A stretch of 36,074 nucleotides of DNA from Rhodobiaceae bacterium. GTDB lineage: Bacteria; Pseudomonadota; Alphaproteobacteria; Rhizobiales; JANQQB01. The notes beneath the pieces were generated by a model. That model was not told the origin of the DNA and did no database searches. It saw nothing but the letters and a program-made list of their open reading frames with translations. Within the stretch, counting starts at the first letter, position 1; the number at the start of each line of letters is the position of its first letter. The translations under genes were made by a program, and so were the position numbers. Positions 6,714 through 21,134 of the stretch are shown here, piece by piece. The DNA lies in contig JANQQB010000021.1 in the NCBI GenBank assembly GCA_028285165.1, forward strand, positions 1-36,074. The letters run 5' to 3'.

Positions 6714-8141
6714 ATGGATCCTGTACATGTCATTGGTGCCGGCCTCGCCGGCTCTGAAGCCGCCTGGCAACTGGCCCGGCGCGGCATTCCTGTCATCCTG
6801 CATGAGATGCGCCCCGTGCGCATGACAGATGCACACCACACCGACAAGTGCGCGGAACTGGTATGCTCCAATTCCTTTCGGTCCGACGACGCGACAAGCA
6901 ATGCGGTCGGCTTGCTGCATGAAGAAATGCGACGCGCCGGATCCCTGATCCTTTCAGAAGGCGACCGCACCAAACTGCCGGCCGGCGGCGCGCTCGCCGT
7001 CGACCGGGATGCGTTTGCCGACGGTGTGACAAAACACCTGACCGAACACGATCTGATCACGCTGGTCTCAGAAGATGTCGATGGACTGCCGGACCCTGAA
7101 TGGTCGTCGGTGATCGTCGCCACCGGCCCGCTCACCTCGCCGGGTCTGTCCCGCGCCATTGCGGACCTGACCGATGCCGATTCCCTGGCCTTTTTCGATG
7201 CCATCGCCCCGATCGTGCATTTCGACACGGTCGATCTGGACGTCGCCTGGTTCCAGTCACGCTATGACAAGGCAGGCCCCGGCGGCAGTGGCGCGGACTA
7301 TGTCAATTGCCCGCTCGACAAGGACGGCTACGAGGCCTTTATCGATGCGCTGCTGGCAGCGGAGACCGCGGAATTCCGCGAATGGGAAAAGTCGACGCCC
7401 TATTTCGACGGCTGCCTGCCGATCGAAGTGATGGCCGCACGCGGCCGCGAAACGCTGCGCCACGGACCGATGAAGCCGGTCGGCCTGACCAATCGGCACA
7501 AACCAGACGAGAAACCCTATGCAGTCGTGCAATTGCGCCAGGACAACGCGCTCGGCACGCTCTACAACCTCGTCGGTTTTCAAACCAAGATGAAGTACGG
7601 CGACCAGGTTCGGGTGCTGCGCATGATACCCGGCCTGGAACAGGCTGAATTCGCCCGGCTTGGCGGCATTCACCGCAACACCTACCTCGATTCACCGCGC
7701 CTGCTGGATGCCACGTTGCGGTTAAAGGCCGAACCGCGCCTGCGCTTTGCCGGACAGATCACCGGATGCGAGGGCTATGTGGAATCCGCCGCGATCGGCC
7801 TTCTCGCGGCCCGGTTCGCGGCCGCCGAACGGCTTGGCGAGGAGATCGACCTGCCTCCCGAAACGACCGCCTTCGGAGCCCTTCTACGCCATATTACGGG
7901 AGGCCATATCGGCCAGACCGAGGTCGGCAAACCCCGCTCCTACCAGCCGATGAACATCAATTTCGGCCTGTTTCCGCCTGTCGAATTCCCGAAAAAGTCG
8001 GAGGACGGTCGGCGGCTGCGGGGATCGGAAAAAACCCTTGCCAAGAAACGGGCCATGACAAGCCGCGCCCTTCGCGATCTGGACACTTGGCTGCAGTCCG
8101 GTTTGCTCGACCGGCAGCGCAAAACCGCGCTTCCCGCATGA
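6714..8141 (+). CDS. trmFO: methylenetetrahydrofolate--tRNA-(uracil-5-)-methyltransferase
   Basis: [57 protein letters not shown]-terminal INFGLFPP motif. Confidence 0.96.
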
Positions 8142-8210
8142 AGCCGAAGAGCGATCAGCGAAAAGGTCGTTTCACCGTGAATCGCTCAAGGGCTACGACC
8201 GTCGGTTGGA

Positions 8211-9875
8211 TTAAGCGATTTCGTTCAAGCTCCGGCCATCGAACTCCAGGAGGCGCGTCGCGCCCGCCAGTTCGCGACGCGACTGGCTGACGACGATCCG
8301 GGTCATGTCGAGCCCGGCCAGCATCTCCCCGATCCGCTCTGTCATCGTCCGATCGAGCGCGGACGTGGCTTCATCGAGGAACAAAATCACCGGTGAACCC
8401 ACAACCGCCCGGGCCAGGCCCAGGCGTTGCTTTTGGCCGCCCGACAACGTGTCGACATCGCTGCCAACGGGTGTTGCAAGCCCCATAGGCAGCGCACGGA
8501 TCTCTTCGCCGAGTTCCACCCGGTCCAATGCGTGCCAAACCTCAGGTTCCGTATAAAGGCCATTGTGGGACACCGCTTCTGCAATCGTGCTTGGAAAAAA
8601 CGCCTCTCCCTGTAAGACGACCCCGAACTGACGATTTGCGTTACCCTTTCGCAGGTCCGCCAGGGAGTGACCGTCAATTCGGACCGCTCCGCTGTCCGGT
8701 TGTTCCAGGCCAAGCATGAGTCGCAGGATCGTGGATTTGCCGACATCCGAGGGCCCGACGATGCCGACAAACTCTCCCGGTTCAACTCGCAGAGAAAGAT
8801 TTTCGAAAACAGGTTCCCCCGTATCGGGATAGGCAAAGCCGACACGGTCGAACTGGATAGTACCGCTTAGCCCATTCGCCGGCTGGGGAGGAGCCAACTC
8901 AATTGTCAAAAGCGGCGCAATCCGATTGAGCGCGGGAATGAGGCTTAGACTGGCGTAACAGGCTGAGGTTACGCCGGAAATCGTCGCAAAAAGCAAAGTG
9001 ACCGTATAGGTGAACGACGCAAAGTCACCGACGGAAATCGAATTGGGGATCGAGAGTGCGAGCATGGCCGCGCACAGCACCGCAAAACCGGGAAAAACCG
9101 TAAGCGCCACGGTGCTTGTGTTCTCGAAACGGTAGAGGTCCCGGTAGGCACACAGTTGTTCGCCCAATCGGTCGAGCCAGAGCCCCGCCACCAACGAAGT
9201 TTTAGCCGCGACCCGCAGGAACGCGACCGAGTTCAACGACCCAAGGCCGAATGCACTGACCGAAGCTTCATGCTCCAGCATCTCAGTGGTCCGAGCCAGA
9301 TAGGCACGTCGGATCAGGCTCACAAAAACAAGAGGTGCAAGAGCCAGAGCCAGGCTGATCCAGGCCAGCACTGGTGACAATGTCGCAATAGTCAGCGTCA
9401 GCGGAATCGCGGTCAGGAGGCCGAAGCCAATCCCGGAACCCAGACCGATCAGGGAGGCACGAACCTGCTCGGCGCCTAGCATACGAACATGGACGTCTCC
9501 GCTGGCGCTGTTGCGGCCGAAAGCATCCGGAGCGGCCAATTGGCGTTGCCAGAGCGCGGGCATCAATCGCAGATCGACAGACCGTTCCACATGGCTCAAC
9601 GCCACATCGCGGACGATCCGGATGACGGCAAGGCCCAGCACCGCTGCAGCCATGATCGCCGCTGGAAGAAGCAGGTCGCCATCACCGCCTTGGCCTTGGA
9701 TGACGGCGGCGTCGACCAATTGTTTGAGAAACAGTGGCACAAGAGCAGCAAAGCCACCGGCAACGAGTGCGGCAATGCCTATGCCCAGATAGGCCTTGAG
9801 GCTTCCGGCAAAGCCGATTTGCAGAATGATCTGTAAGCTCTGCAAGGGCGACAACAAGGGCGGTCGATCTGTCAC
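8211..9875 (-). CDS. ABC transporter permease/ATPase of a peptide exporter (second half of a two-gene NHLP-like pair)
   Basis: TM region plus NBD: Walker A GPSDVGKST, signature LSGGQKQR, Walker B VILFLDEATSALD. GTG at 9875 lies 1 nt after the upstream gene's TGA, so this start is preferred over 9944 (translational coupling). Confidence 0.85.
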   Translation of the reverse strand: MTDRPPLLSPLQSLQIILQIGFAGSLKAYLGIGIAALVAGGFAALVPLFLKQLVDAAVIQGQGGDGDLLLPAAIMAAAVLGLAVIRIVRDVALSHVERSVDLRLMPALWQRQLAAPDAFGRNSASGDVHVRMLGAEQVRASLIGLGSGIGFGLLTAIPLTLTIATLSPVLAWISLALALAPLVFVSLIRRAYLARTTEMLEHEASVSAFGLGSLNSVAFLRVAAKTSLVAGLWLDRLGEQLCAYRDLYRFENTSTVALTVFPGFAVLCAAMLALSIPNSISVGDFASFTYTVTLLFATISGVTSACYASLSLIPALNRIAPLLTIELAPPQPANGLSGTIQFDRVGFAYPDTGEPVFENLSLRVEPGEFVGIVGPSDVGKSTILRLMLGLEQPDSGAVRIDGHSLADLRKGNANRQFGVVLQGEAFFPSTIAEAVSHNGLYTEPEVWHALDRVELGEEIRALPMGLATPVGSDVDTLSGGQKQRLGLARAVVGSPVILFLDEATSALDRTMTERIGEMLAGLDMTRIVVSQSRRELAGATRLLEFDGRSLNEIA

Positions 9876-9876
9876 C

Positions 9877-12000
9877 TCACGCCCTTTCCTCAGGCTCTGA
9901 CGCCGGCACCCAAAGGCGCGGACCGAGCCGAACCACCTTGTCACAGTGGCCGATTAACCGATCCCGATGGGTGATGAGCACCACACTGGCCCCGGTGGCC
10001 TTGATGGCAGCCAAAATCGCAGCTTCGCGATCCACGTCGAGCGCACTCGTCGCCTCGTCCATGATCAGCAATCGTGGATGCGCACAAAGGGCGCGTGCGA
10101 TTTGTATCCTCTGGCGCTCACCCCCACTGAAATTCCTGCCGTTTTCGGCAACGGCACAGTCCAATTCCAACGGACGGCGTCGCACCGCATCCGCGAGGCA
10201 AACATCCTCCAATACGGCCCACATCTTTTGGTCATCAGATGTCGGGGTCCACAGACTGAGATTGTCCCGCAAGGTTCCCGCGAACAGATGCGTCTCCTGG
10301 TCCAGCCAGTGCAGACCCCTCGCAAGGTGGCTCCTGTCAAGGATCTCAATGGGTAAACCGTCGATGAGGATCTGACCGTCGACGTCGGGTAACAACCCCG
10401 CGCACGCTTTGCCGACCGTCGATTTCCCGGCTCCGCTCGGTCCGACAAGCGCCACCCATTCACCCGGATCGAGACGTAGCGAGAGATCCTGGACCACCGG
10501 CGGCGCTATCGGAGCGTACCGGATCGTTACGGCCTTGAGCTCGAGCCGGCCTTCCGGCACATGATGCACGTTTCGAAGCGGCGTGACGGTCTCGGCCGGC
10601 GTATCGAGCGCATCGTCCAGACGATCAAGGTGTCCCTGGATTGGCTGCAGCTGTGCGATCGTTCGCATCAACCTGTTCGTCGGGGCGTAGATCGAAAGGA
10701 TCAATGCCTGGATGGCAATCAGCGTACCTGATGACTGGGTGCCGGCGGCAACCTGCTGGGCGCCCAGCGCGAGAACGACGACGATGGCAAGCCCGAGGAT
10801 CGTATCCGGCACCACCGCCAGGCACCGGGTCGCAACCGACAATCGAAAGGTTGTCCGGGCGACGGACCGGTTGATCGCTGTCCAGCGGTCAAGGAAGGCC
10901 TTCTCGAGACCGCCGGCGCGAATCGAATCAAGGGCGCGCAACCCTCCCAGCGACATTGCGGTCCTCTGTCCCCGCTCATGAGCTAACAGCCGGACGGCTT
11001 CCAGCCTTTGAGCGGCGAGCAGCTGATAGGCCATGCCGATTAGTGCAGAAAACGTGAACACAACCGCCGTCAGAACGGTCGAATAAACGAGCATGCAAAT
11101 GGTGATCCCCACAATGGCGACGCCGTCCTGAAGAGCCTGGGTGAGCTGGATGCTGGTGTAATTCGAGATCCGTAGGGTCGTCTTTACGCGCGCATTGACC
11201 TCCCCGCCGTAGCGATGGGCGAAAAACCGCAAGGGCAAGGCAACCAGATGGTCGATAAACCGGCGCGCCAGACGGTCACTTTGGGTGACTTCAAGATCCG
11301 CCACACGGGACAGCCTGGTTGCGGTCAGCCACAGATGGATGAGGACAGTGATTGCAAACGCAACGGCAAGCAGGGTGCCGGCGCCGGCATCATGGCCGAT
11401 GAGAACCTGATCGACAAATCGCCGCGACAGATCGGCCAGAGCGAGTGGCGGAACAAGCAGAACAGAACTGACGACCGAGACGATAATCGCCTCTCTACGC
11501 TGTCCCTGAAGGTGTCCGAGTAAAGCACCAAGCGTTGATTTGCGCGTGTCGGAGGGTTCGAAATCCTCTCCTGGCTCAGCTTCAACAATGACGTTCGAAA
11601 AGTTCCGTTGCCAATCCGGGAGCGGAATGGTCCGGCGACCGCGGGCCGGATCGTTGACTTCGACGGCTCCGTTGCGGATGCCCTCAACGACGAGAAAGTG
11701 ATGCGATCGCCAAAGCGCGATGCAGGGATAGGTCACATCGGCGTCGGTCAGGCTCACAACACGATAGCCGCGCATGGAAAGACCGCGTTCGCGCCCTGCC
11801 GTTATGATATCGGAAGCCCGCGCTCCGTCACGCGACACGCCGCAGGCGAAGCGAAGGTCTGCCAGGCTGTCAAACCGCCCGTAATACCGCAACAGGATTG
11901 CCAACGCCGCGGCACCGCATTCCGCCGTCTCCATCTGAAGGACGATCGGCGTGCGTCGCGGGCGCCGGACCAGTCTTGCAAACGGGAACCTCATCCCCAA
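9877..12000 (-). CDS. C39 peptidase/permease/ATPase, bacteriocin-type ABC exporter (NHLP-like)
   Basis: N-terminal C39 domain with all catalytic elements (TPIVLQMETAECGAAALAILLRYYG; SHHFLVVEG; NDPARG), TM domain, NBD with GPSGAGKST, FSGGERQR, LLIMDEATSALD. Confidence 0.92.
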   Translation of the reverse strand: MGMRFPFARLVRRPRRTPIVLQMETAECGAAALAILLRYYGRFDSLADLRFACGVSRDGARASDIITAGRERGLSMRGYRVVSLTDADVTYPCIALWRSHHFLVVEGIRNGAVEVNDPARGRRTIPLPDWQRNFSNVIVEAEPGEDFEPSDTRKSTLGALLGHLQGQRREAIIVSVVSSVLLVPPLALADLSRRFVDQVLIGHDAGAGTLLAVAFAITVLIHLWLTATRLSRVADLEVTQSDRLARRFIDHLVALPLRFFAHRYGGEVNARVKTTLRISNYTSIQLTQALQDGVAIVGITICMLVYSTVLTAVVFTFSALIGMAYQLLAAQRLEAVRLLAHERGQRTAMSLGGLRALDSIRAGGLEKAFLDRWTAINRSVARTTFRLSVATRCLAVVPDTILGLAIVVVLALGAQQVAAGTQSSGTLIAIQALILSIYAPTNRLMRTIAQLQPIQGHLDRLDDALDTPAETVTPLRNVHHVPEGRLELKAVTIRYAPIAPPVVQDLSLRLDPGEWVALVGPSGAGKSTVGKACAGLLPDVDGQILIDGLPIEILDRSHLARGLHWLDQETHLFAGTLRDNLSLWTPTSDDQKMWAVLEDVCLADAVRRRPLELDCAVAENGRNFSGGERQRIQIARALCAHPRLLIMDEATSALDVDREAAILAAIKATGASVVLITHRDRLIGHCDKVVRLGPRLWVPASEPEERA

Positions 12001-12011
12001 TCCACGCGCCT

Positions 12012-12929
12012 TCAGCCCTTGGAAAGCCGCTTTTCCGACCGCATGTTGATTACGGATGATTCGACAAGTGACTGCAAACGACCCGTAATGAGGTTTGTCG
12101 CTGACTCATTCTCCCTGAAAAAGAAGAAGACGCCTTTTCGATGGTGAAGAGCCTTGATTGAAACATGCCGTTCGATGGCCCCTCTTACGAGCGCGAGCGC
12201 GGCCGCGCTGCCCCGTTCGGCAGGTGACACAAACAGGCGGGCATAGTTCACGTGCCCTGCCCCGTCGTCGGTGCATAACAACAGGCCGGAAATCAAACCG
12301 GACCGCACAAGCGCCACGCTGACATCTTCGATCAGAATGTCGGCGTACCGGTGGTAATCCCGCCATGTCAGCGGTGCCAGATCCTCAAGCGCTTCAAGAG
12401 ACGCCTTCTCTCCTGACGAAAGGTCGGCCCAAGATTTGATCTCAGTGCCCTCTGGCGGGTCAGCGCTTTCCCACCAGTCAAGCGCATTAGTGCGACCGAG
12501 GTCGAGCGCCAGGATTGCACGTTCCGAATGTTCCCGAAAGTCCGACCATCCCCGGGATTGGAGCAGATGCGCGATTGTCGGAAGCGTATCGGTCTTGCGC
12601 ACCTCGCAATATATCTCGTCAAGTCGCTTTGTGGCGGCCCAGCGTTCAACCGTCCCCAAAACCTCCGAACCATGGCCTTGTCGCCGCGCCGCGCCGTCCG
12701 TATGTATCCATTCCAGCCGGCCGCGATTGGTTTTGTTGAAAACCTGAACAACAGCGATCGCGCATGCTTGATCATCTGTACAGGCGACAAAACAGACTAT
12801 TTCTTTGTTTTGTCCGCGACTGAGAAGTGTTGGGGGTAGCCATTTCGCCACCCCTAGTGAAAGTGACTCATCAAGGCTAACACGCCGAACCGTCAGAGCA
12901 GTCAAACCCGTTGCATCCGACTTTCTCAC
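12012..12929 (-). CDS. tandem GNAT-fold acyltransferase, candidate polyketide-peptide condensing enzyme
   Basis: 305 aa. First GNAT domain has motif A LEWIHTDGAARRQGHGSEVLGTVERWA. Second, more degenerate half has HVNYARLFVSPAERGSAAALALVRGAIE. Start appears to be GTG. Confidence 0.8.
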   Translation of the reverse strand: MRKSDATGLTALTVRRVSLDESLSLGVAKWLPPTLLSRGQNKEIVCFVACTDDQACAIAVVQVFNKTNRGRLEWIHTDGAARRQGHGSEVLGTVERWAATKRLDEIYCEVRKTDTLPTIAHLLQSRGWSDFREHSERAILALDLGRTNALDWWESADPPEGTEIKSWADLSSGEKASLEALEDLAPLTWRDYHRYADILIEDVSVALVRSGLISGLLLCTDDGAGHVNYARLFVSPAERGSAAALALVRGAIERHVSIKALHHRKGVFFFFRENESATNLITGRLQSLVESSVINMRSEKRLSKG

Positions 12930-12998
12930 CCCCCAACAAATCAGCCGATCTACTTGACCACAGACCGGCCTTCCTTACTTACGAAGATTTAGCGGCAC

Positions 12999-13139
12999 TC
13001 ACTTACCGTCATCTGCGTCATCGCCTTCGTAATAAACGAAGGGTCCGACCGAAATGAGATCAAGCTCTTGCTGACTCAGTTCTGACTTGATCTCTTCAAC
13101 TTTCTTTTCGTTTTTCTGGGCTTTCGTTTCGTGGTTCAT
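12999..13139 (-). CDS. 46-aa RiPP/bacteriocin-like precursor peptide
   Basis: Reverse-strand translation from ATG 13139 to TGA 12999: MNHETKAQKNEKKVEEIKSELSQQELDLISVGPFVYYEGDDADDGK. Leader LSQQELDLISVG aligns with the double-Gly leader consensus (L-12, S-11, E-8, L-7, I-4, G-1). First gene upstream of GNAT and C39 exporter on the same strand. GGAAAG ends 8 nt before ATG. Below the ORF-track length cutoff. Confidence 0.82.
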   Translation of the reverse strand: MNHETKAQKNEKKVEEIKSELSQQELDLISVGPFVYYEGDDADDGK

Positions 13140-13178
13140 TTTTCTAACTTTCCAGTTTTTATCGTTTGTTTCCACGGG

Positions 13179-13206
13179 TTTATCTGTTGTGGCCCGATAG
13201 CGTCAA
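13179..13206 (-). promoter_or_regulatory. predicted sigma70-type promoter for the peptide-GNAT-exporter operon
   Basis: Reverse strand TTGACG-N16-GATAAA, -10 element ~40 nt upstream of ATG 13139. Confidence 0.5.
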
Positions 13207-13781
13207 GATAATGACGGCCTCCCTCAGTTCAACCCGTAAAAGCAGGATACCCTCAAAAATGTTTCTCAATGGTTATTAATTGGACTGATTTGACCGACAA
13301 ATATGGACAAGTATCTCTTTTAAGTTGTGTTATGAAAACTAGATTAACGTTCGCACAGCGGTTCCGATCGTCGCGTTGCTCTTTCTGCGAAGGATAATCG
13401 AACCGCAGGGTACCGGGGCGATTTTTGGAAAATCCTAACTCCAAGCCAATGACAAGGCGATCCGGAGCTGTTGGATAGTAGACTCAATCTAAGATGTGAA
13501 TCTGAAACCTGAATGCAATGGTGCCCTGCGAGCACAAACAGGCCGTGGAGGGCAGTCCGAGGATCTTCAGGACATGTCACCGGCAGACTGACGACTGAGA
13601 TCGTGACGGTCGGTATGCTCATGACAGGGCTTCACAGCAGCCTGGCATGGCGTTACCCGAACTTCGCCGGCGATGCATTTCCCTGCATCTTTGACTTTCG
13701 CAAGAGTTAAAAAGATTCTTTTTTGATGAGATAAATATCCACAATCCGGACAAAAAAATCCTAGATTCAATTTTTTTAGCA

Positions 13782-13810
13782 TTGAGCACATTCGCATATT
13801 TACCGATAAA
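13782..13810 (+). promoter_or_regulatory. predicted sigma70-type promoter for the PKS gene
   Basis: TTGAGC-N17-GATAAA, about 85 nt upstream of ATG 13896. Same -10 hexamer as the divergent operon. Confidence 0.45.
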
Positions 13811-13895
13811 GGCGTCGGCTTCGACGCTGGCATTCTAACACCCTCCCCGATCTGGCGTCCCACGGCTATGAAATCCTTTGGATACAGTTTGAGTC

Positions 13896-16800
13896 ATGAA
13901 CAACGAAGCCAGTCGTACTGGACCTCATAGTCTAGCGCCGTTCCCGGCGGATGCTGTCGCGATCGTCGGTATGGGCTGTCGTCTGCCCGGCGGAGTCCAT
14001 GGACCGACAGCGTTGTGGGAAAACCTCCTGCATCGTTTCGACGGGGTCTCCAGTGTTCCAGCGGACCGCTGGAAACACGAAATGCTGTATTCGAAAACAA
14101 AGGGAAAACCCGGGAAATACAGCGTCACGCGGGCCGCCTTCCTTACCGATTGGGACCACAAGACGTTTGACCGCGAGTTTTTCGGTATCAACCCGAGGGA
14201 AGCCGAGCAGATGGACCCGCAGCAGCGGCTGGTGCTCGAAACGGCCGTGGAAGCCTTGAATGACGCCGGCATCGGAGTTGAGCGCGCGGCCGCCGGTTCA
14301 ACAGGCGTGTTTGTCGGTGCCTTTATGATGGACCAGTTCGTCACAGCCAACGAAACGCTGGCCCGTTCCAGGATTACCGCCCAGACCACCATTGCGGGCA
14401 ACGCAACAATGATTGCGGCTCGGATTTCCCACGCGCTCAATCTGACCGGTCCAAGCCTGGCGATCGATACGGCCTGTTCCTCCTCCCTTGTTGCGTTTCA
14501 TGTTGCAGTCCAGTCAATCCGCACCGGAGAATCGGATCTTGCGCTAACCGGTGGCGTCAACTTCATGCTGCGGCCCGAAACCTTCATAACGCTGTCGGCA
14601 GGAGGTTTCCTGGCCGCAGACGGCCGATCAAAGTGCTTCGACGTTGGCGCCGATGGATACGGGCGCGGCGAAGGCTGCGGTATCGTGGTGCTCAAGCGTC
14701 TGGAAGACGCGCTTGGCGATAACGACCGGATCTATGCTGTTGTCCGCGGAACCGGAGTCAACCAGGATGGCCATACTTCGGCGATCGCCGTGCCCAGCGC
14801 CGCCGCACAGCAGGCGCTCATGGAACGCGTGCTTGCGACATCCGAAATCGACCCGCGATGGATCGACTATGTCGAAGCGCATGGAACGGGCACGCCGATC
14901 GGCGACCCAGCCGAATGCAGTTCGATCGCAACGGCCTACGCGCGATTTCGGCCCGAAACCGCCCCCTGTTATGTTGGGTCGATAAAGTCCAGCACTGGCC
15001 ATCTGGAGGCCGGCGCGGGCATTGCCGGTATTCTGAAAGCCGCTCTTGTCGCACGTCACCGAAAGGTGCCGCCACAAGGGTGGATTGAGACACTGAACCC
15101 CAATATCGATTTTGAAAAACTCAATCTCCGTGTACCGGTAGAAACGACCGAGATTGGCCGACCCGAACGCGGGACGTTCGTCGCTGTCAACTCGTTCGGT
15201 TATGGCGGCACGAACGCCCATGTCATCTTGCAATCGCCACCTGCATCCCCTGGGGCATCCCCTGGGGAACGAAGGGCCAATGCCGGTCGCTTTCGCGTAG
15301 CGGGCAAGGATTTTTTTGCCTTGACGCTCTCTGCGCAGAGCGAGGCAGGGTTGACCGCTGTCGCCCGGCAATGGCTGGAAAAAGTCGAGCACTGCGATGC
15401 AGGGGCTCTGGGAGATCTATGCTGGTCGACGGCAACGCGTCGCAGCCACTGGAGCCGGCGCGCCATGGTCTTGGGGACGAGCCTGGAAGACATCGAAACG
15501 GCCCTGGACGACCTGGCGGAAGCCCATCCGAACGACGCCCTGGTAACGGCAAAGTCGACGAATGTCTCAAGCCGCGCGACGACCGGGCCGGCCTTTGTGT
15601 TCTCGGGTATGGGACCGCAATGGTGGGGAATGGCGCGTCAACTGTTGCTGGCCGACAGCCGGTTCCGCGCGGTGGCCGACGCCTGCGACGCGGCCTTCGG
15701 TGACGTTGCAGGGTGGAGTATCCTGCAGGAAATGCTGAAGGACGAAGCGGACTCACAGATCGCCGACACGCGTGTCGCGCAACCCGCCAACGCGGTTGTC
15801 CAGATTGGGCTCACCGAACTGTTCAAAACCTGGGGCATCGTTCCACAAGCCGTCATCGGTCACAGTACAGGTGAGATTGCCGCGGCCTATGCGGCCGGCA
15901 TCTACGACATTCCGCAGGCGATGACGGTTGCATTCCATCGCAGCCAGGCCCAGGGTCGGCTTTCCGGCAAGGGCGCGATGTTAGCCGCCGGATTGTCCGA
16001 AAACGAAGCCGGCACCTGGGTGGGGCCGGACGCGCAGAACATCGCGATCGCCGCGATAAATGGGCCGAATTCCGTCACCTTTTCAGGTCGGCCTGCGACG
16101 CTGAGATACATCCAGACTTCCCTGGAAGCCGTGGGCAGATTTGTCCGCATGCTGGACGTCGACATCGCCTATCACAGCCCTCAAATGGCTGAGATACGCG
16201 AAGAATTAACGGCCAATCTCAGTGCCGTGGAACCCGGCATTCCGTCTCGACCGATCTATTCAACGGTCACCGGAAAGCCGGTGCGGGACGAGCGTTTCGA
16301 TGCCGCATACTGGTACCGTAACGTTCGGGATCCGGTCCGGTTTCGGGCGGCCATTGAAGCCATGATCGAAGATGGCTGGACGGATTTTGTCGAAGTTGGT
16401 CCTCATCCGGTTCTGAGCCACTCCATTCAACAGATCGGCATAGCCGGCTCCACGGCGATAACGGTGGCCAATACGTTGTCCAGAAGACGATCCGACGACG
16501 ACTCCATCGCCCGCGCCCTTGGCCAGATCTACGTCAATGGAGGGACGCTCGACTGGTCGTTGATCCTGGGCCGGGGGTGCCGCGTCGACCTGCCGGGTTA
16601 TCCGTGGCAGCGCGAGCTGTTGTGGTATGATCGGCCGGAAACCGAAGCCTATCTGGGGCTCGACGATCTGCCGGACTTACTTGGCCGCCGGGATGAGGTC
16701 CGGCAAGCTTGGTATTGTGAACTGCACCTGGACCGGTTCCCGTGGCTGCGTGACCATGTGGTCGATGGCGAAATGGTGTTTCCCGGTGCCGGGTACATTG

Positions 16801-19800
16801 AAGCCGCCGCCCTGATTCAAACACGGATAATGGGCCGCGACCGGTTTGCGCTCTACGACATCGATTTCAGCCGAGGATTGATCCTGCAGGAAGAGACTGC
16901 CCGAGAGCTCCGCCTGGAGCTTGGTAACAACGATCGGGACCTGATCGTCCGCTCTCGAGCACCGGGTTCCGCGTCAGTTACGAACCACGCCCGCATAGGG
17001 TTGTCATCGATGTCGGTGACGCCGCCGGATCCGATCAATCCGAAAGAGATGGCAAAAGCCTTCGGCGAATCGCTTTGTTTGGACGAAGTCTATGACGGCC
17101 TTCATATGCGCGGTCTTGACTATGGCGATGCCTTCCGCACGGTTCTGTCGGAGGTAAAAATTGAGGCGGGCCAGGTTCTCGCATTGTTTGATGTTCCCGA
17201 TGACATGCGCAGTTCCGCCCACGCAATCCATCCGGTCATCCTCGACAGCTGCTTTCATGCTTTGATGGCCGATCTCAGGGGACGGACGGATCCGCACCAG
17301 CTTTACGTGCCAAGACGGATACGCGCTTTGCATTTCTTCAGGCCCTTGCAAAGCAAGCTTGTGCTCTACTGCACGGGTCTCGTCGAGTCAGCAGACGGCT
17401 TCACCGTCGACTTCTCCGTTTATGACGCTGCTGGAGATGCGGTCTTTTTGGTTCTTGGCCTCGACATACGGCCGATCCCGCGCAGTTCCGGTAACGAGAT
17501 TGACAACAATGCTCGGTATCACTTCGACCTGACCTGGCTTTCTCCGGCGAACGCGGTGGATTCGAAAAGTGATGCTTCCACTGTCATTGCCCTACTCGAC
17601 CGCAACGAAAAGGGCCGTGCGGTCGCAGAGGCGGCCAGCAAGGGCCGTCACCTGACAATTCTGAGACCGGATGAACGCGATCGGCTGGCCGGTCTCGTCG
17701 AAGCCGCGCCCGGCGCTGTTGTACTCGATTTCTGCGCGCTCGACGCCGCGCCTGAGGACGGCGGCTGCGATGCCCTGTGCCTTGGCTTGTCGACGCTACA
17801 GACCCTCTCGGCGTCTCGATTCGGCCGATGCATTCTTGTTACCGAACGCGCGCAACCTGCAGCCGGTGCGCACAGCCAGCTAAATCCCGAACAGGCGTCG
17901 CTGATCGGCGCAATCCGTGTCGCTGACAATGAGCTCAACAATCATCGTTTTGGTGCTGTGGACTTCGGAGACTTAAAGAGCGCGCAGGAACTGGCACAAA
18001 CGGCACAGGCGATAGCGCTCAGCGCGAGAGACCTGGAAGTCACGATCCGCGGCGACAGGCTGACGACGCCGAGAATAGTGCCCGTAGATCCGACAGCATC
18101 GCCGAAGAAAACCGAACGCCGGTTCGGCGATGCGGCAACCCGCTTGGCGCTGCTGTCAGATGGCGACGCCTTGGCGTGGCACTGGCGGGATGACGAACCG
18201 CAGCCTCCGCAACCCGGCGAAGTTGCCCTTGCCATTGATGCGCTCGTGCTTCCCCCCGCCCGATCCGCCCAAGCACGACAGAACAAGGCGGACGCCGCCG
18301 GCGGACAAGTGGTAGCCGGCCGGATTGTGGCGACAGGCACTGAGACCGACACCAGTTTCAACCTGGGCGACCGACTCGTCGGGATAGTGCCAGATGGGCT
18401 TGCCTCCGATCTGGTTTTGCCCGCCACCCAAATCGAACGGTCAATGGTCCGGCTACCGGCGCACGTTTCGACCGAATATGCCGTCGCAGCAGTACTGCCC
18501 TTTACGGCTGCGCTTTACGCACTGGAAACCGTTGCGCGCCCTGAGCCCGATGAAACGGTTCTTATTGCCGGACTTGACGCCGATAACGATCTGGCTGCTG
18601 TGCAAATCGCGCGGGCGTCCGGTGCCAGGGTGTTTGCGCTCCACGCGTCGGTCGACGGCCGCGCACGCCTTCGCCTGGCAGGTTGCGACGGCGTCTTTGA
18701 CAGCGCCACGTCCGATTTTCGCGAAAGCCTTCTTGCAGAGACTGATGGCCGCGGTGTCGATATCGTGCTCAGCAACGGAAAGGGCGAGCTTGCCGAGTTA
18801 TGCGCCGGTCTCCTCGCACCCTTGGGCCGGCTGGTCCAATTTGGCGGGTTGGCGATATCGGTGTTTGGTGCATCTCCGACACGCGAGCATGCCGGCTCTC
18901 TTTCGGTCACAACCTTCAATCCGCGCACGCTATGGCAGGAACGGCCAACGCTCTTCAAAAGGCTTTTGAAGGACGTTCTGAACCGCCTGGAAGACGCACA
19001 GATCAAGCCGATCAAGCCGATCACCCTTCAGGCCGACACCCTTGAAACAGAGCAGCCGGATCATGACCCGGAGCGCAACCGACTTGTGCTGACACTCGAC
19101 CCCGACGCGACCATCGAGGCAATCGCGAAGCCCAAAAGTACGACGTCGGATTTCGGCGGCGATGGCGCCTGTTTAATCACCGGCGGCCTGACGGGCTTGG
19201 GGCTGGCAACCGCACGATGGCTTGCCCGCAACGGTGTGCGATCGCTCGTCCTCGTCAGCCGTCGTGGCCCTGACGCGCCGGGCACTGCCGAGATTAAAGT
19301 CGAGTTGGAACAGATCGGCGTTCAAGTACACGTGTTTGCCTGCGATGTCGGGAAACGGGACCAGGTCGAAGCGTTGTTCTCGCGCCTTGATGCACAGTCG
19401 ATCTCGTTGTCGGGCGTGTTCCACGCCGCCGGCGTCCTGGAGGACGCGATCATCGAGAACCAGACACCGGATATGCTGCGCCGTGTCTTCGGCGCCAAAT
19501 CCATTGCCGCGTGGAACCTTCACCGGGCAACGCAGGATCACCCGGTGAAATGGTTCGTGCTCTATTCGTCGATTTCGTCCTTCATCGGCACGCCAGGACA
19601 ACTTGGTTATGTCGGGGCAAACGCCGTCATGGATAGCCTTGCCCACTACCGACGCAACCTTGGTTTGCCGGCACTCAGCGTCAACTGGGGTGTCATCGGC
19701 GATGTCGGGATGGCGGCCAATACGGGCGATTCCCTGCAATGGGTCGAACAGGCTATTTTTACGCCGCTATCGCCCGACATCGCCCTTGATTCGCTTCACG

Positions 19801-20228
19801 TAGCCTTTGCGCTCGACAAGGTTCAGATGTCGGTCGCCGACGCCAATTGGGGCCTTTGGGCGAACGCCTCATCCCGGACCGCGTCATCGCGCAAGTTCGA
19901 GACCTTCGAGGCAGAACCGATGGAAACCGAAAAAGCCGCGCAAGCCATGCTTGCAGGGCTGCCGGCTGCAGAACGGTTCGACTGTTTGCAAAGGCTTTTG
20001 ATAGAGGCGCTGTCGCACGTTCTTTCCCTGTCACCCGAAAAAATCTCGCCGCAAAGGCCAATGAACGAGTTTGGCCTCGATTCTCTCATGGTGACGGAAT
20101 TGCAGATTGAATTCAGCAAATTGGGTATTCAACTCTCGCTCATGGAGTTGATGCAGAGCGAGAACATGCGGCAGCTGACCCACACCGCACTCAATGTCAT
20201 GAAGTTCGACCACGCCAGCGCGGCGTAA
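13896..20228 (+). CDS. type I polyketide synthase, single reducing module KS-AT-DH-ER(degenerate)-KR-ACP, no thioesterase
   Basis: KS: DTACSSS, EAHGTGTPIGD, GHLEAGAG. AT: FVFSGMGPQWWGM, GHSTGE, YHSPQM. DH: HVVDGEMVFPGAGY and HPVILDSCFHAL. KR: LITGGLTGLGLATARWLA, YSS, GYVGANA. ACP: NEFGLDSLMV (Ser codon 20082-20084). Protein ends ~50 aa after the ACP Ser. Confidence 0.95.
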   Translation: MNNEASRTGPHSLAPFPADAVAIVGMGCRLPGGVHGPTALWENLLHRFDGVSSVPADRWKHEMLYSKTKGKPGKYSVTRAAFLTDWDHKTFDREFFGINPREAEQMDPQQRLVLETAVEALNDAGIGVERAAAGSTGVFVGAFMMDQFVTANETLARSRITAQTTIAGNATMIAARISHALNLTGPSLAIDTACSSSLVAFHVAVQSIRTGESDLALTGGVNFMLRPETFITLSAGGFLAADGRSKCFDVGADGYGRGEGCGIVVLKRLEDALGDNDRIYAVVRGTGVNQDGHTSAIAVPSAAAQQALMERVLATSEIDPRWIDYVEAHGTGTPIGDPAECSSIATAYARFRPETAPCYVGSIKSSTGHLEAGAGIAGILKAALVARHRKVPPQGWIETLNPNIDFEKLNLRVPVETTEIGRPERGTFVAVNSFGYGGTNAHVILQSPPASPGASPGERRANAGRFRVAGKDFFALTLSAQSEAGLTAVARQWLEKVEHCDAGALGDLCWSTATRRSHWSRRAMVLGTSLEDIETALDDLAEAHPNDALVTAKSTNVSSRATTGPAFVFSGMGPQWWGMARQLLLADSRFRAVADACDAAFGDVAGWSILQEMLKDEADSQIADTRVAQPANAVVQIGLTELFKTWGIVPQAVIGHSTGEIAAAYAAGIYDIPQAMTVAFHRSQAQGRLSGKGAMLAAGLSENEAGTWVGPDAQNIAIAAINGPNSVTFSGRPATLRYIQTSLEAVGRFVRMLDVDIAYHSPQMAEIREELTANLSAVEPGIPSRPIYSTVTGKPVRDERFDAAYWYRNVRDPVRFRAAIEAMIEDGWTDFVEVGPHPVLSHSIQQIGIAGSTAITVANTLSRRRSDDDSIARALGQIYVNGGTLDWSLILGRGCRVDLPGYPWQRELLWYDRPETEAYLGLDDLPDLLGRRDEVRQAWYCELHLDRFPWLRDHVVDGEMVFPGAGYIEAAALIQTRIMGRDRFALYDIDFSRGLILQEETARELRLELGNNDRDLIVRSRAPGSASVTNHARIGLSSMSVTPPDPINPKEMAKAFGESLCLDEVYDGLHMRGLDYGDAFRTVLSEVKIEAGQVLALFDVPDDMRSSAHAIHPVILDSCFHALMADLRGRTDPHQLYVPRRIRALHFFRPLQSKLVLYCTGLVESADGFTVDFSVYDAAGDAVFLVLGLDIRPIPRSSGNEIDNNARYHFDLTWLSPANAVDSKSDASTVIALLDRNEKGRAVAEAASKGRHLTILRPDERDRLAGLVEAAPGAVVLDFCALDAAPEDGGCDALCLGLSTLQTLSASRFGRCILVTERAQPAAGAHSQLNPEQASLIGAIRVADNELNNHRFGAVDFGDLKSAQELAQTAQAIALSARDLEVTIRGDRLTTPRIVPVDPTASPKKTERRFGDAATRLALLSDGDALAWHWRDDEPQPPQPGEVALAIDALVLPPARSAQARQNKADAAGGQVVAGRIVATGTETDTSFNLGDRLVGIVPDGLASDLVLPATQIERSMVRLPAHVSTEYAVAAVLPFTAALYALETVARPEPDETVLIAGLDADNDLAAVQIARASGARVFALHASVDGRARLRLAGCDGVFDSATSDFRESLLAETDGRGVDIVLSNGKGELAELCAGLLAPLGRLVQFGGLAISVFGASPTREHAGSLSVTTFNPRTLWQERPTLFKRLLKDVLNRLEDAQIKPIKPITLQADTLETEQPDHDPERNRLVLTLDPDATIEAIAKPKSTTSDFGGDGACLITGGLTGLGLATARWLARNGVRSLVLVSRRGPDAPGTAEIKVELEQIGVQVHVFACDVGKRDQVEALFSRLDAQSISLSGVFHAAGVLEDAIIENQTPDMLRRVFGAKSIAAWNLHRATQDHPVKWFVLYSSISSFIGTPGQLGYVGANAVMDSLAHYRRNLGLPALSVNWGVIGDVGMAANTGDSLQWVEQAIFTPLSPDIALDSLHVAFALDKVQMSVADANWGLWANASSRTASSRKFETFEAEPMETEKAAQAMLAGLPAAERFDCLQRLLIEALSHVLSLSPEKISPQRPMNEFGLDSLMVTELQIEFSKLGIQLSLMELMQSENMRQLTHTALNVMKFDHASAA

Positions 20229-20273
20229 TCGCTCACGCCTGTCTTGGCATGTACCTGCAAACCACACAATGCT

Positions 20274-21134
20274 CTAGGGGTTGAGCGACGCCAGACGCCT
20301 GGCAGTCCGCCACAGCGTCCATTGCCGACGCCATTGCGGGATCTCGACCAGGTCCTTGCGCGGATCCTTGCGGCCGCATTCGAATACCTTGAGATAGGCC
20401 GGTGCTATACCGGTCTGGAGATAGGCGGCCGCCAGTCCCTGACACCCGGCGGCGACAAAGGCCTGTTCGAACCGGTCGAGGTGATGGCGCGCATGGGCGC
20501 ACATTTCCTGAACGACCGCGTGCAACCGGCTGCTGCAGATCGGCTCAAGCACTTCTTCCGATGACATGCCGTGCCGCCCCAGCACATCGGCGGGCAGGAA
20601 CACCTGCCGCTTCGCTGTATGCCAGGGGATCCGGCGCAGCATATCGACAATGCCGAGCGCCGCGCCGGCATGGCCCGACACATCCGCCGTGCCGGGATCG
20701 CGGCCTCCGGCCAGAATGATCGCCGCCAATTGCATGACCGCCGACACGGTCTCGCCGGCATAACCCTCAAGGTCGGTCAGCATCGGCATCGGATCGTTGT
20801 AGAGATCGAACGTGTGCGCTTCGATCAGATCGAGCAGCGGCGTTGTCGGCAGCCGGTAGGTCTCGATCACCTGCACCAGCGATGCCGCGACCGGGTTGGC
20901 TTCGACGGATCCGTGCGCGATGTTCTGCAGCGCGTCCGACCACCATTGCAGCCGGATCTCTCCCGGCATCGGATCGCTGACGATATCCGGGATGCGGTTG
21001 ATCTCCACATCGAAGGCATAGAGCGCCAGCAGGGCATCGCGGTGTTCCTCGGCGGCAAACAGGGCGCTCAGATAGCGGTCCCTGTCATGCTGTCGAACGA
21101 GGTTGCGGCAATGATCGGCGGCGGTACACTCCAT
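20274..21134 (-). CDS. squalene/phytoene synthase-like protein (possibly NDUFAF6-like)
   Basis: RYLSALFAAEEHRDALLALYAFDVEINRIPDIVSDPMPGEIRLQWWSDAL; GIVDMLRRIPWHTAKRQVFLPADVL. Fold family recognisable, but the Asp-rich motifs are not canonical. Confidence 0.8.
   Translation of the reverse strand: MECTAADHCRNLVRQHDRDRYLSALFAAEEHRDALLALYAFDVEINRIPDIVSDPMPGEIRLQWWSDALQNIAHGSVEANPVAASLVQVIETYRLPTTPLLDLIEAHTFDLYNDPMPMLTDLEGYAGETVSAVMQLAAIILAGGRDPGTADVSGHAGAALGIVDMLRRIPWHTAKRQVFLPADVLGRHGMSSEEVLEPICSSRLHAVVQEMCAHARHHLDRFEQAFVAAGCQGLAAAYLQTGIAPAYLKVFECGRKDPRKDLVEIPQWRRQWTLWRTARRLASLNP

What the first reader, a model, noticed from the sequence alone, without database searches (positions are those of the whole stretch)
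12999..13139. Unlisted 46-aa precursor peptide with double-Gly-type leader and Cys/Ser/Thr-free core
Missed by the ORF track because of its size. MNHETKAQKNEKKVEEIKSELSQQELDLISVG|PFVYYEGDDADDGK. Highly charged leader, then LSQQELDLISVG, which fits the C39 leader consensus at -12, -11, -8, -7, -4 and -1. It is immediately upstream of GNAT and C39 exporter genes and has its own plausible promoter and SD. The core cannot form thioether rings or azolines (no Cys/Ser/Thr) and ends in the only core Lys.
Basis: seen in the sequence. Interest (0 to 1): 0.9.

Follow-up and report, generated by a model that had tools for sequence, protein, structure and literature searches.

The report
Candidate lipidated peptide gene cluster
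A small overlooked gene appears to encode the precursor of an exported, fat-tagged peptide, made with a neighbouring lipid-building enzyme, an attaching enzyme and a cutting exporter; it is a new variant of a known kind of bacterial natural product and has not been tested experimentally.

Summary
The 46-codon ORF exists, on the minus strand (13139 to 12999). Its leader ending (LSQQELDLISVG) is the only match among 282 small ORFs of the window, against 0 of 1,036 in control loci. It opens an operon: peptide, GNAT, C39 exporter, second ABC subunit. A divergent fully reducing PKS without a thioesterase lies upstream. These five genes sit between trmFO and an hpnD-like gene that are tail-to-tail neighbours in at least 18 of 29 relatives, so they look like one 12-kb island.

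The GNAT belongs to a rare tandem-GNAT family. In six of seven other genomes its members lie beside Nif11- or NHLP-type precursors; the seventh is a 2.4-kb contig with a radical SAM gene. A model (pLDDT 87) matches tandem GNATs. NpuN, which puts fatty acyl groups on Lys1 of nostolysamide, has the same published architecture. The C39 triad is intact.

Best reading: a 14-residue acidic peptide is acylated, probably on its only Lys, with a PKS-made saturated chain, then cleaved and exported. Shown: genes, family, island. Inferred: acylation, site, donor. No close relative of the peptide or full cluster was found. New variant of GNAT-lipidated RiPPs.

The parts
12999..13139 (-). Precursor peptide ORF, 46 aa: 32-aa charged leader, predicted cut after SVG, 14-aa acidic core PFVYYEGDDADDGK
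12943..12970 (-). Terminator-like hairpin between the precursor and the GNAT gene (11 pairs, T-rich tail); possible attenuator, weak support (z -1.5)
12012..12929 (-). Tandem GNAT N-acyltransferase, 305 aa; P-loop RRQGHG in the N-terminal domain only; candidate peptide acyltransferase
9877..12000 (-). C39 peptidase/permease/ATPase exporter, nearest TIGR03796 (NHLM_micro_ABC1), below its curated cut-off; Cys, His and Asp of the C39 site present
8211..9944 (-). Second ABC permease/ATPase, nearest TIGR03797 (NHLM_micro_ABC2), below cut-off and without its N-terminal part
13896..20228 (+). Single-module type I PKS, KS-AT-DH-ER-KR-ACP, no thioesterase found; candidate source of a saturated acyl chain
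8142..20273 (.). 12.1-kb island between trmFO (6714-8141, +) and an hpnD-like gene (20274-21134, -), neighbours in relatives

Best explanation
The ORF encodes the precursor of a secreted, lipidated linear RiPP. The single-module PKS builds a fully reduced acyl chain on its ACP and has no thioesterase. The tandem GNAT takes that acyl group (or a fatty acyl-CoA/ACP) and joins it to the precursor, most likely to the side chain of the C-terminal Lys46, the only Lys in the core. The C39 domain of the NHLP-type exporter cuts after SVG, and the two ABC subunits export the acidic 14-mer with its lipid. Shown: the ORF, the operon, the island, the family memberships and the intact active-site motifs. 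Inferred: expression, acylation, its site, the PKS as donor, the cut and the export.
For: ORF and leader pattern above chance. NHLP-type exporter with intact C39 residues. The GNAT family was found in 7 other genomes: Nif11 precursors beside it in L093, L094, L103, L108 and L109, an NHLP precursor in L046, and a radical SAM gene on the short contig L095. L103, L109 and L046 also carry NHLP-type exporters. Tandem-GNAT model with pLDDT 86.9, matched to 2WPW and VipF. NpuN, which acylates Lys1 of NpuA, is described as a tandem GNAT with a clear P-loop only in its N-terminal domain, and its relatives lie with NHLP or Nif11 precursors, not always with a lanthionine synthetase (PMC13060382). Island of exactly these genes. 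PKS with all reducing domains and no thioesterase. No other Nif11/NHLP precursor in the genome; the one NHLP hit is a nitrile hydratase alpha subunit by its sequence and its neighbour.
Against: No relative of the peptide and no second copy of the five-gene set was found, so core and leader are not conserved in anything tested. GNAT identity to its aligned relatives is only 16-21%. The three L103 cores hold no Lys, so the family need not use Lys side chains. Position -2 of the leader is Val. No sigma-70 promoter was found. The PKS has only distant relatives in the sample (30-40% identity); around the two whose surroundings were read far enough (G404, G462) and partly G586, no leader-motif peptide was seen. 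No HlyD-type adaptor lies in the island.
Confidence: 0.62

Rival explanations
1. The peptide is acylated at its N-terminus after the leader is cut off, as in lipolanthines and goadvionins, not on the Lys side chain.
For: The L103 cores beside a GNAT of the same family have no Lys. Known PKS-GNAT RiPPs are N-terminally acylated (PMC13060382, PMC9505594).
Against: The predicted N-terminal residue is Pro, a secondary amine. Cutting and export are one machine here, so a cytosolic GNAT would have to act before the cut. NpuN acylated NpuA Lys1 when co-expressed with the leader-bearing precursor.
Confidence: 0.18
2. The GNAT acylates the peptide with ordinary fatty acids, and the PKS makes a separate product that shares the site by chance.
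For: Phaeornamide carries a fatty acid from primary metabolism (PMC9505594). NpuN accepts several acyl-CoAs. The PKS is transcribed divergently and no RiPP genes were seen near its relatives.
Against: The PKS lies inside the same island between two genes that are neighbours in relatives. It has no release domain.
Confidence: 0.2
3. The peptide is an unmodified microcin-like peptide or signal; the GNAT protects the producer or has another substrate.
For: The core lacks Cys, Ser and Thr, and no ring-forming enzyme is present in the island. Self-protecting GNATs are known in other peptide systems (own knowledge).
Against: The GNAT family sits with precursor peptides in six other genomes whose clusters differ otherwise.
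Confidence: 0.1
4. The ORF is spurious and the exporter serves another precursor elsewhere.
For: Short ORF, only its own copy found in the genome search, no family match, no promoter found.
Against: Leader pattern 1/282 against 0/1,036, coding-like frame, first place in the operon; no Nif11/NHLP precursor elsewhere in the genome. The assembly is about 93% complete, so an unseen precursor is possible.
Confidence: 0.06

Closest known systems
Nostolysamides (NpuA/NpuM/NpuN, Nostoc punctiforme) and other selidamides (phaeornamide, kamptornamide)
   Same: Tandem GNAT with the P-loop in its N-terminal domain, double-Gly-type leader, C39 exporter; acylation of a side-chain amine proposed here
   Different: No lanthionine synthetase, no peptide arginase; short leader instead of Nif11/NHLP; core without Cys/Ser/Thr; adjacent PKS, whereas phaeornamide's chain comes from primary metabolism
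Lipolanthines and goadvionins (microvionin, goadvionin)
   Same: RiPP, polyketide-type chain and GNAT in one pathway
   Different: Those are class III lanthipeptides with N-terminal acyl groups; here there is no lanthipeptide enzyme, a tandem GNAT, an NHLP-type C39 exporter and a genome placed with proteobacterial-type housekeeping gene order
NHLP/Nif11 precursor-export systems (TIGR03796/TIGR03797/TIGR03794)
   Same: Both ABC subunits score best against these models
   Different: Both below the curated cut-offs, no HlyD gene in the island, precursor leader not of either family

Membership tests
Selidamides (GNAT-lipidated side-chain RiPPs) | Fatty acyl group on a side-chain amine (Lys/Orn) | not testable with these tools
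   Needs mass spectrometry; the core has one Lys
Selidamides (GNAT-lipidated side-chain RiPPs) | Cluster encodes a GNAT with a precursor and exporter | tested here: met
Selidamides (GNAT-lipidated side-chain RiPPs) | GNAT of the NpuN type (tandem fold, P-loop in the N-terminal domain only) | tested here: inconclusive
NHLP/Nif11 leader RiPP precursors | Leader matches TIGR03793 or TIGR03798 | tested here: not met
   No NCBIfam match for the peptide
NHLP-type export system | TIGR03796 and TIGR03797 above cut-off | tested here: not met
   Best models, but 623 of 853 and 338 of 709 bits
C39 double-Gly export substrates | Leader pattern and an exporter with intact C39 Cys/His/Asp | tested here: met
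   Val at -2 is atypical
Lipolanthines/goadvionins | Class III lanthipeptide enzyme and avionin-forming Ser/Cys in the core | tested here: not met
   No Ser/Cys in the core; no such gene among the five island genes identified

The most novel reading that the evidence does not exclude
A minimal hybrid class: a ribosomal peptide with no ring chemistry, whose only modification is a PKS-made chain loaded onto a C-terminal Lys by a tandem GNAT, giving an acidic, possibly metal-binding lipopeptide.
Probability: 0.4. Interest if true: 0.7.

Novelty: new variant of a known kind. Interest (0 to 1): 0.55.

Why it matters
It would join two known routes, selidamide-type side-chain acylation and PKS-RiPP hybrids, in a cluster of five genes, giving a small system for making lipopeptides from a gene-encoded core. 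It also suggests that GNAT-lipidated RiPPs can have precursors that the NHLP and Nif11 models miss.

Tried and rejected
GNAT search of genome contigs found nothing and of plasmids nothing; no PDB sequence relative; a single-sequence model of the GNAT was poor (pLDDT 45) and was replaced by one from a 7-row alignment. Exporter relatives with named organisms (L123-L129) carry no close GNAT of this family. The surroundings of PKS relatives showed no leader-motif peptide. Weak GNAT hits in the order match one domain only or score low and were not used. G379 (L102/L104) is a partial hit and was not counted.

Full report
Observation. The ORF lies on the minus strand, 13139 to 12999. It encodes a 32-residue charged leader ending LSQQELDLISVG and a 14-residue core, PFVYYEGDDADDGK. 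Among 282 small ORFs of the window it is the only one with a double-Gly-type leader pattern; 1,036 small ORFs of control loci have none. The frame scores best of six by codon use and has a coding-like GC profile. It is followed after 69 nt by the GNAT gene. A terminator-like hairpin lies in that gap, but its fold is only 1.5 sd better than shuffles. No sigma-70-type promoter was found.

Surroundings. Minus strand: peptide, GNAT (12929-12012), C39 exporter (12000-9877), second ABC subunit (9944-8211). Plus strand: a PKS of 2,110 aa (13896-20228) with KS, AT, DH, ER, KR and ACP and no thioesterase motif. The exporter subunits score best against the NHLP export models TIGR03796 and TIGR03797, both below cut-off; the C39 Cys, His and Asp align with those of other NHLP-type exporters.

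Island. In relatives the order is secF, mth938-like, hpnD-like, trmFO, the last two tail to tail. In 18 of 29 relative loci trmFO is seen directly beside the hpnD-like gene within the 1.5-kb flank held; in the window the five genes lie between them. This argues that the PKS and the peptide operon share one insertion, though two separate insertions are not excluded.

GNAT family. The protein has no close relative. Profile searches of about 700 genomes of the class and phylum found six full-length or near full-length relatives, and an exporter locus of the same order held two more in a seventh genome. Nif11 precursors lie beside the GNAT in L093 and L094 (with radical SAM genes), L103, L108 and L109; an NHLP precursor in L046; L095 is a 2.4-kb contig with a radical SAM gene. 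A model from seven sequences is confident (pLDDT 86.9) and matches tandem GNATs such as 2WPW and VipF. The published description of NpuN gives the same architecture and Lys1 acylation (PMC13060382). The radical SAM label on L095 and the L093 509-aa protein rests on the cysteine motif seen in the sequence; the 509-aa L093 protein had no Pfam match, while the 696-aa one did.

Site of acylation. Cores beside family members in L093, L094 and L108 begin with Lys; L109 and L046 cores hold Lys; the three L103 cores do not. So Lys is likely but not required by the family. In the window the only core Lys is the last residue, and the N-terminal residue would be Pro.

Other precursors. The genome has no Nif11 leader match; the one NHLP hit is a nitrile hydratase alpha subunit, judged from its CTLCSC motif and downstream partner. 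HlyD-type matches elsewhere in the genome are below cut-off, and such matches also ring in 12 of 14 control genomes.

Verdict. Observation confirmed; interpretation supported as far as sequence can go. The chemistry is inferred. It is filed as a new variant of GNAT-lipidated RiPPs, not as a proven selidamide.

Noticed in passing
L046:1110-3693: Two tandem GNAT genes side by side, divergent from an NHLP precursor (TIGR03793 above cut-off), near an NHLP-type exporter, in a genome of the same order.
   Followed up: partly
L103:2455-15402: Cluster with three Nif11-type precursors whose short cores have Cys but no Lys, a tandem GNAT, TIGR03796 above cut-off, an HlyD gene and a 1,482-aa ABC1-ABC2 fusion; no lanthionine synthetase or radical SAM gene seen.
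   Followed up: partly
L093:10647-10997 and L094:5729-6130: Nif11-type precursors with His-rich cores (GG|KGHHHH...) in loci with radical SAM and tandem GNAT genes; possible metal binding.
   Followed up: no
L048:2824-3437 and L124:7455-7631: Short charged-leader peptides ending LSEEELQQVAGG, LSEDDLATVAGG and LTAEELRKISGG near relatives of the window's exporter.
   Followed up: no
L104:8573-9355: A Nif11-like N-terminal sequence in a 260-aa ORF overlapping a partial GNAT-family hit.
   Followed up: no
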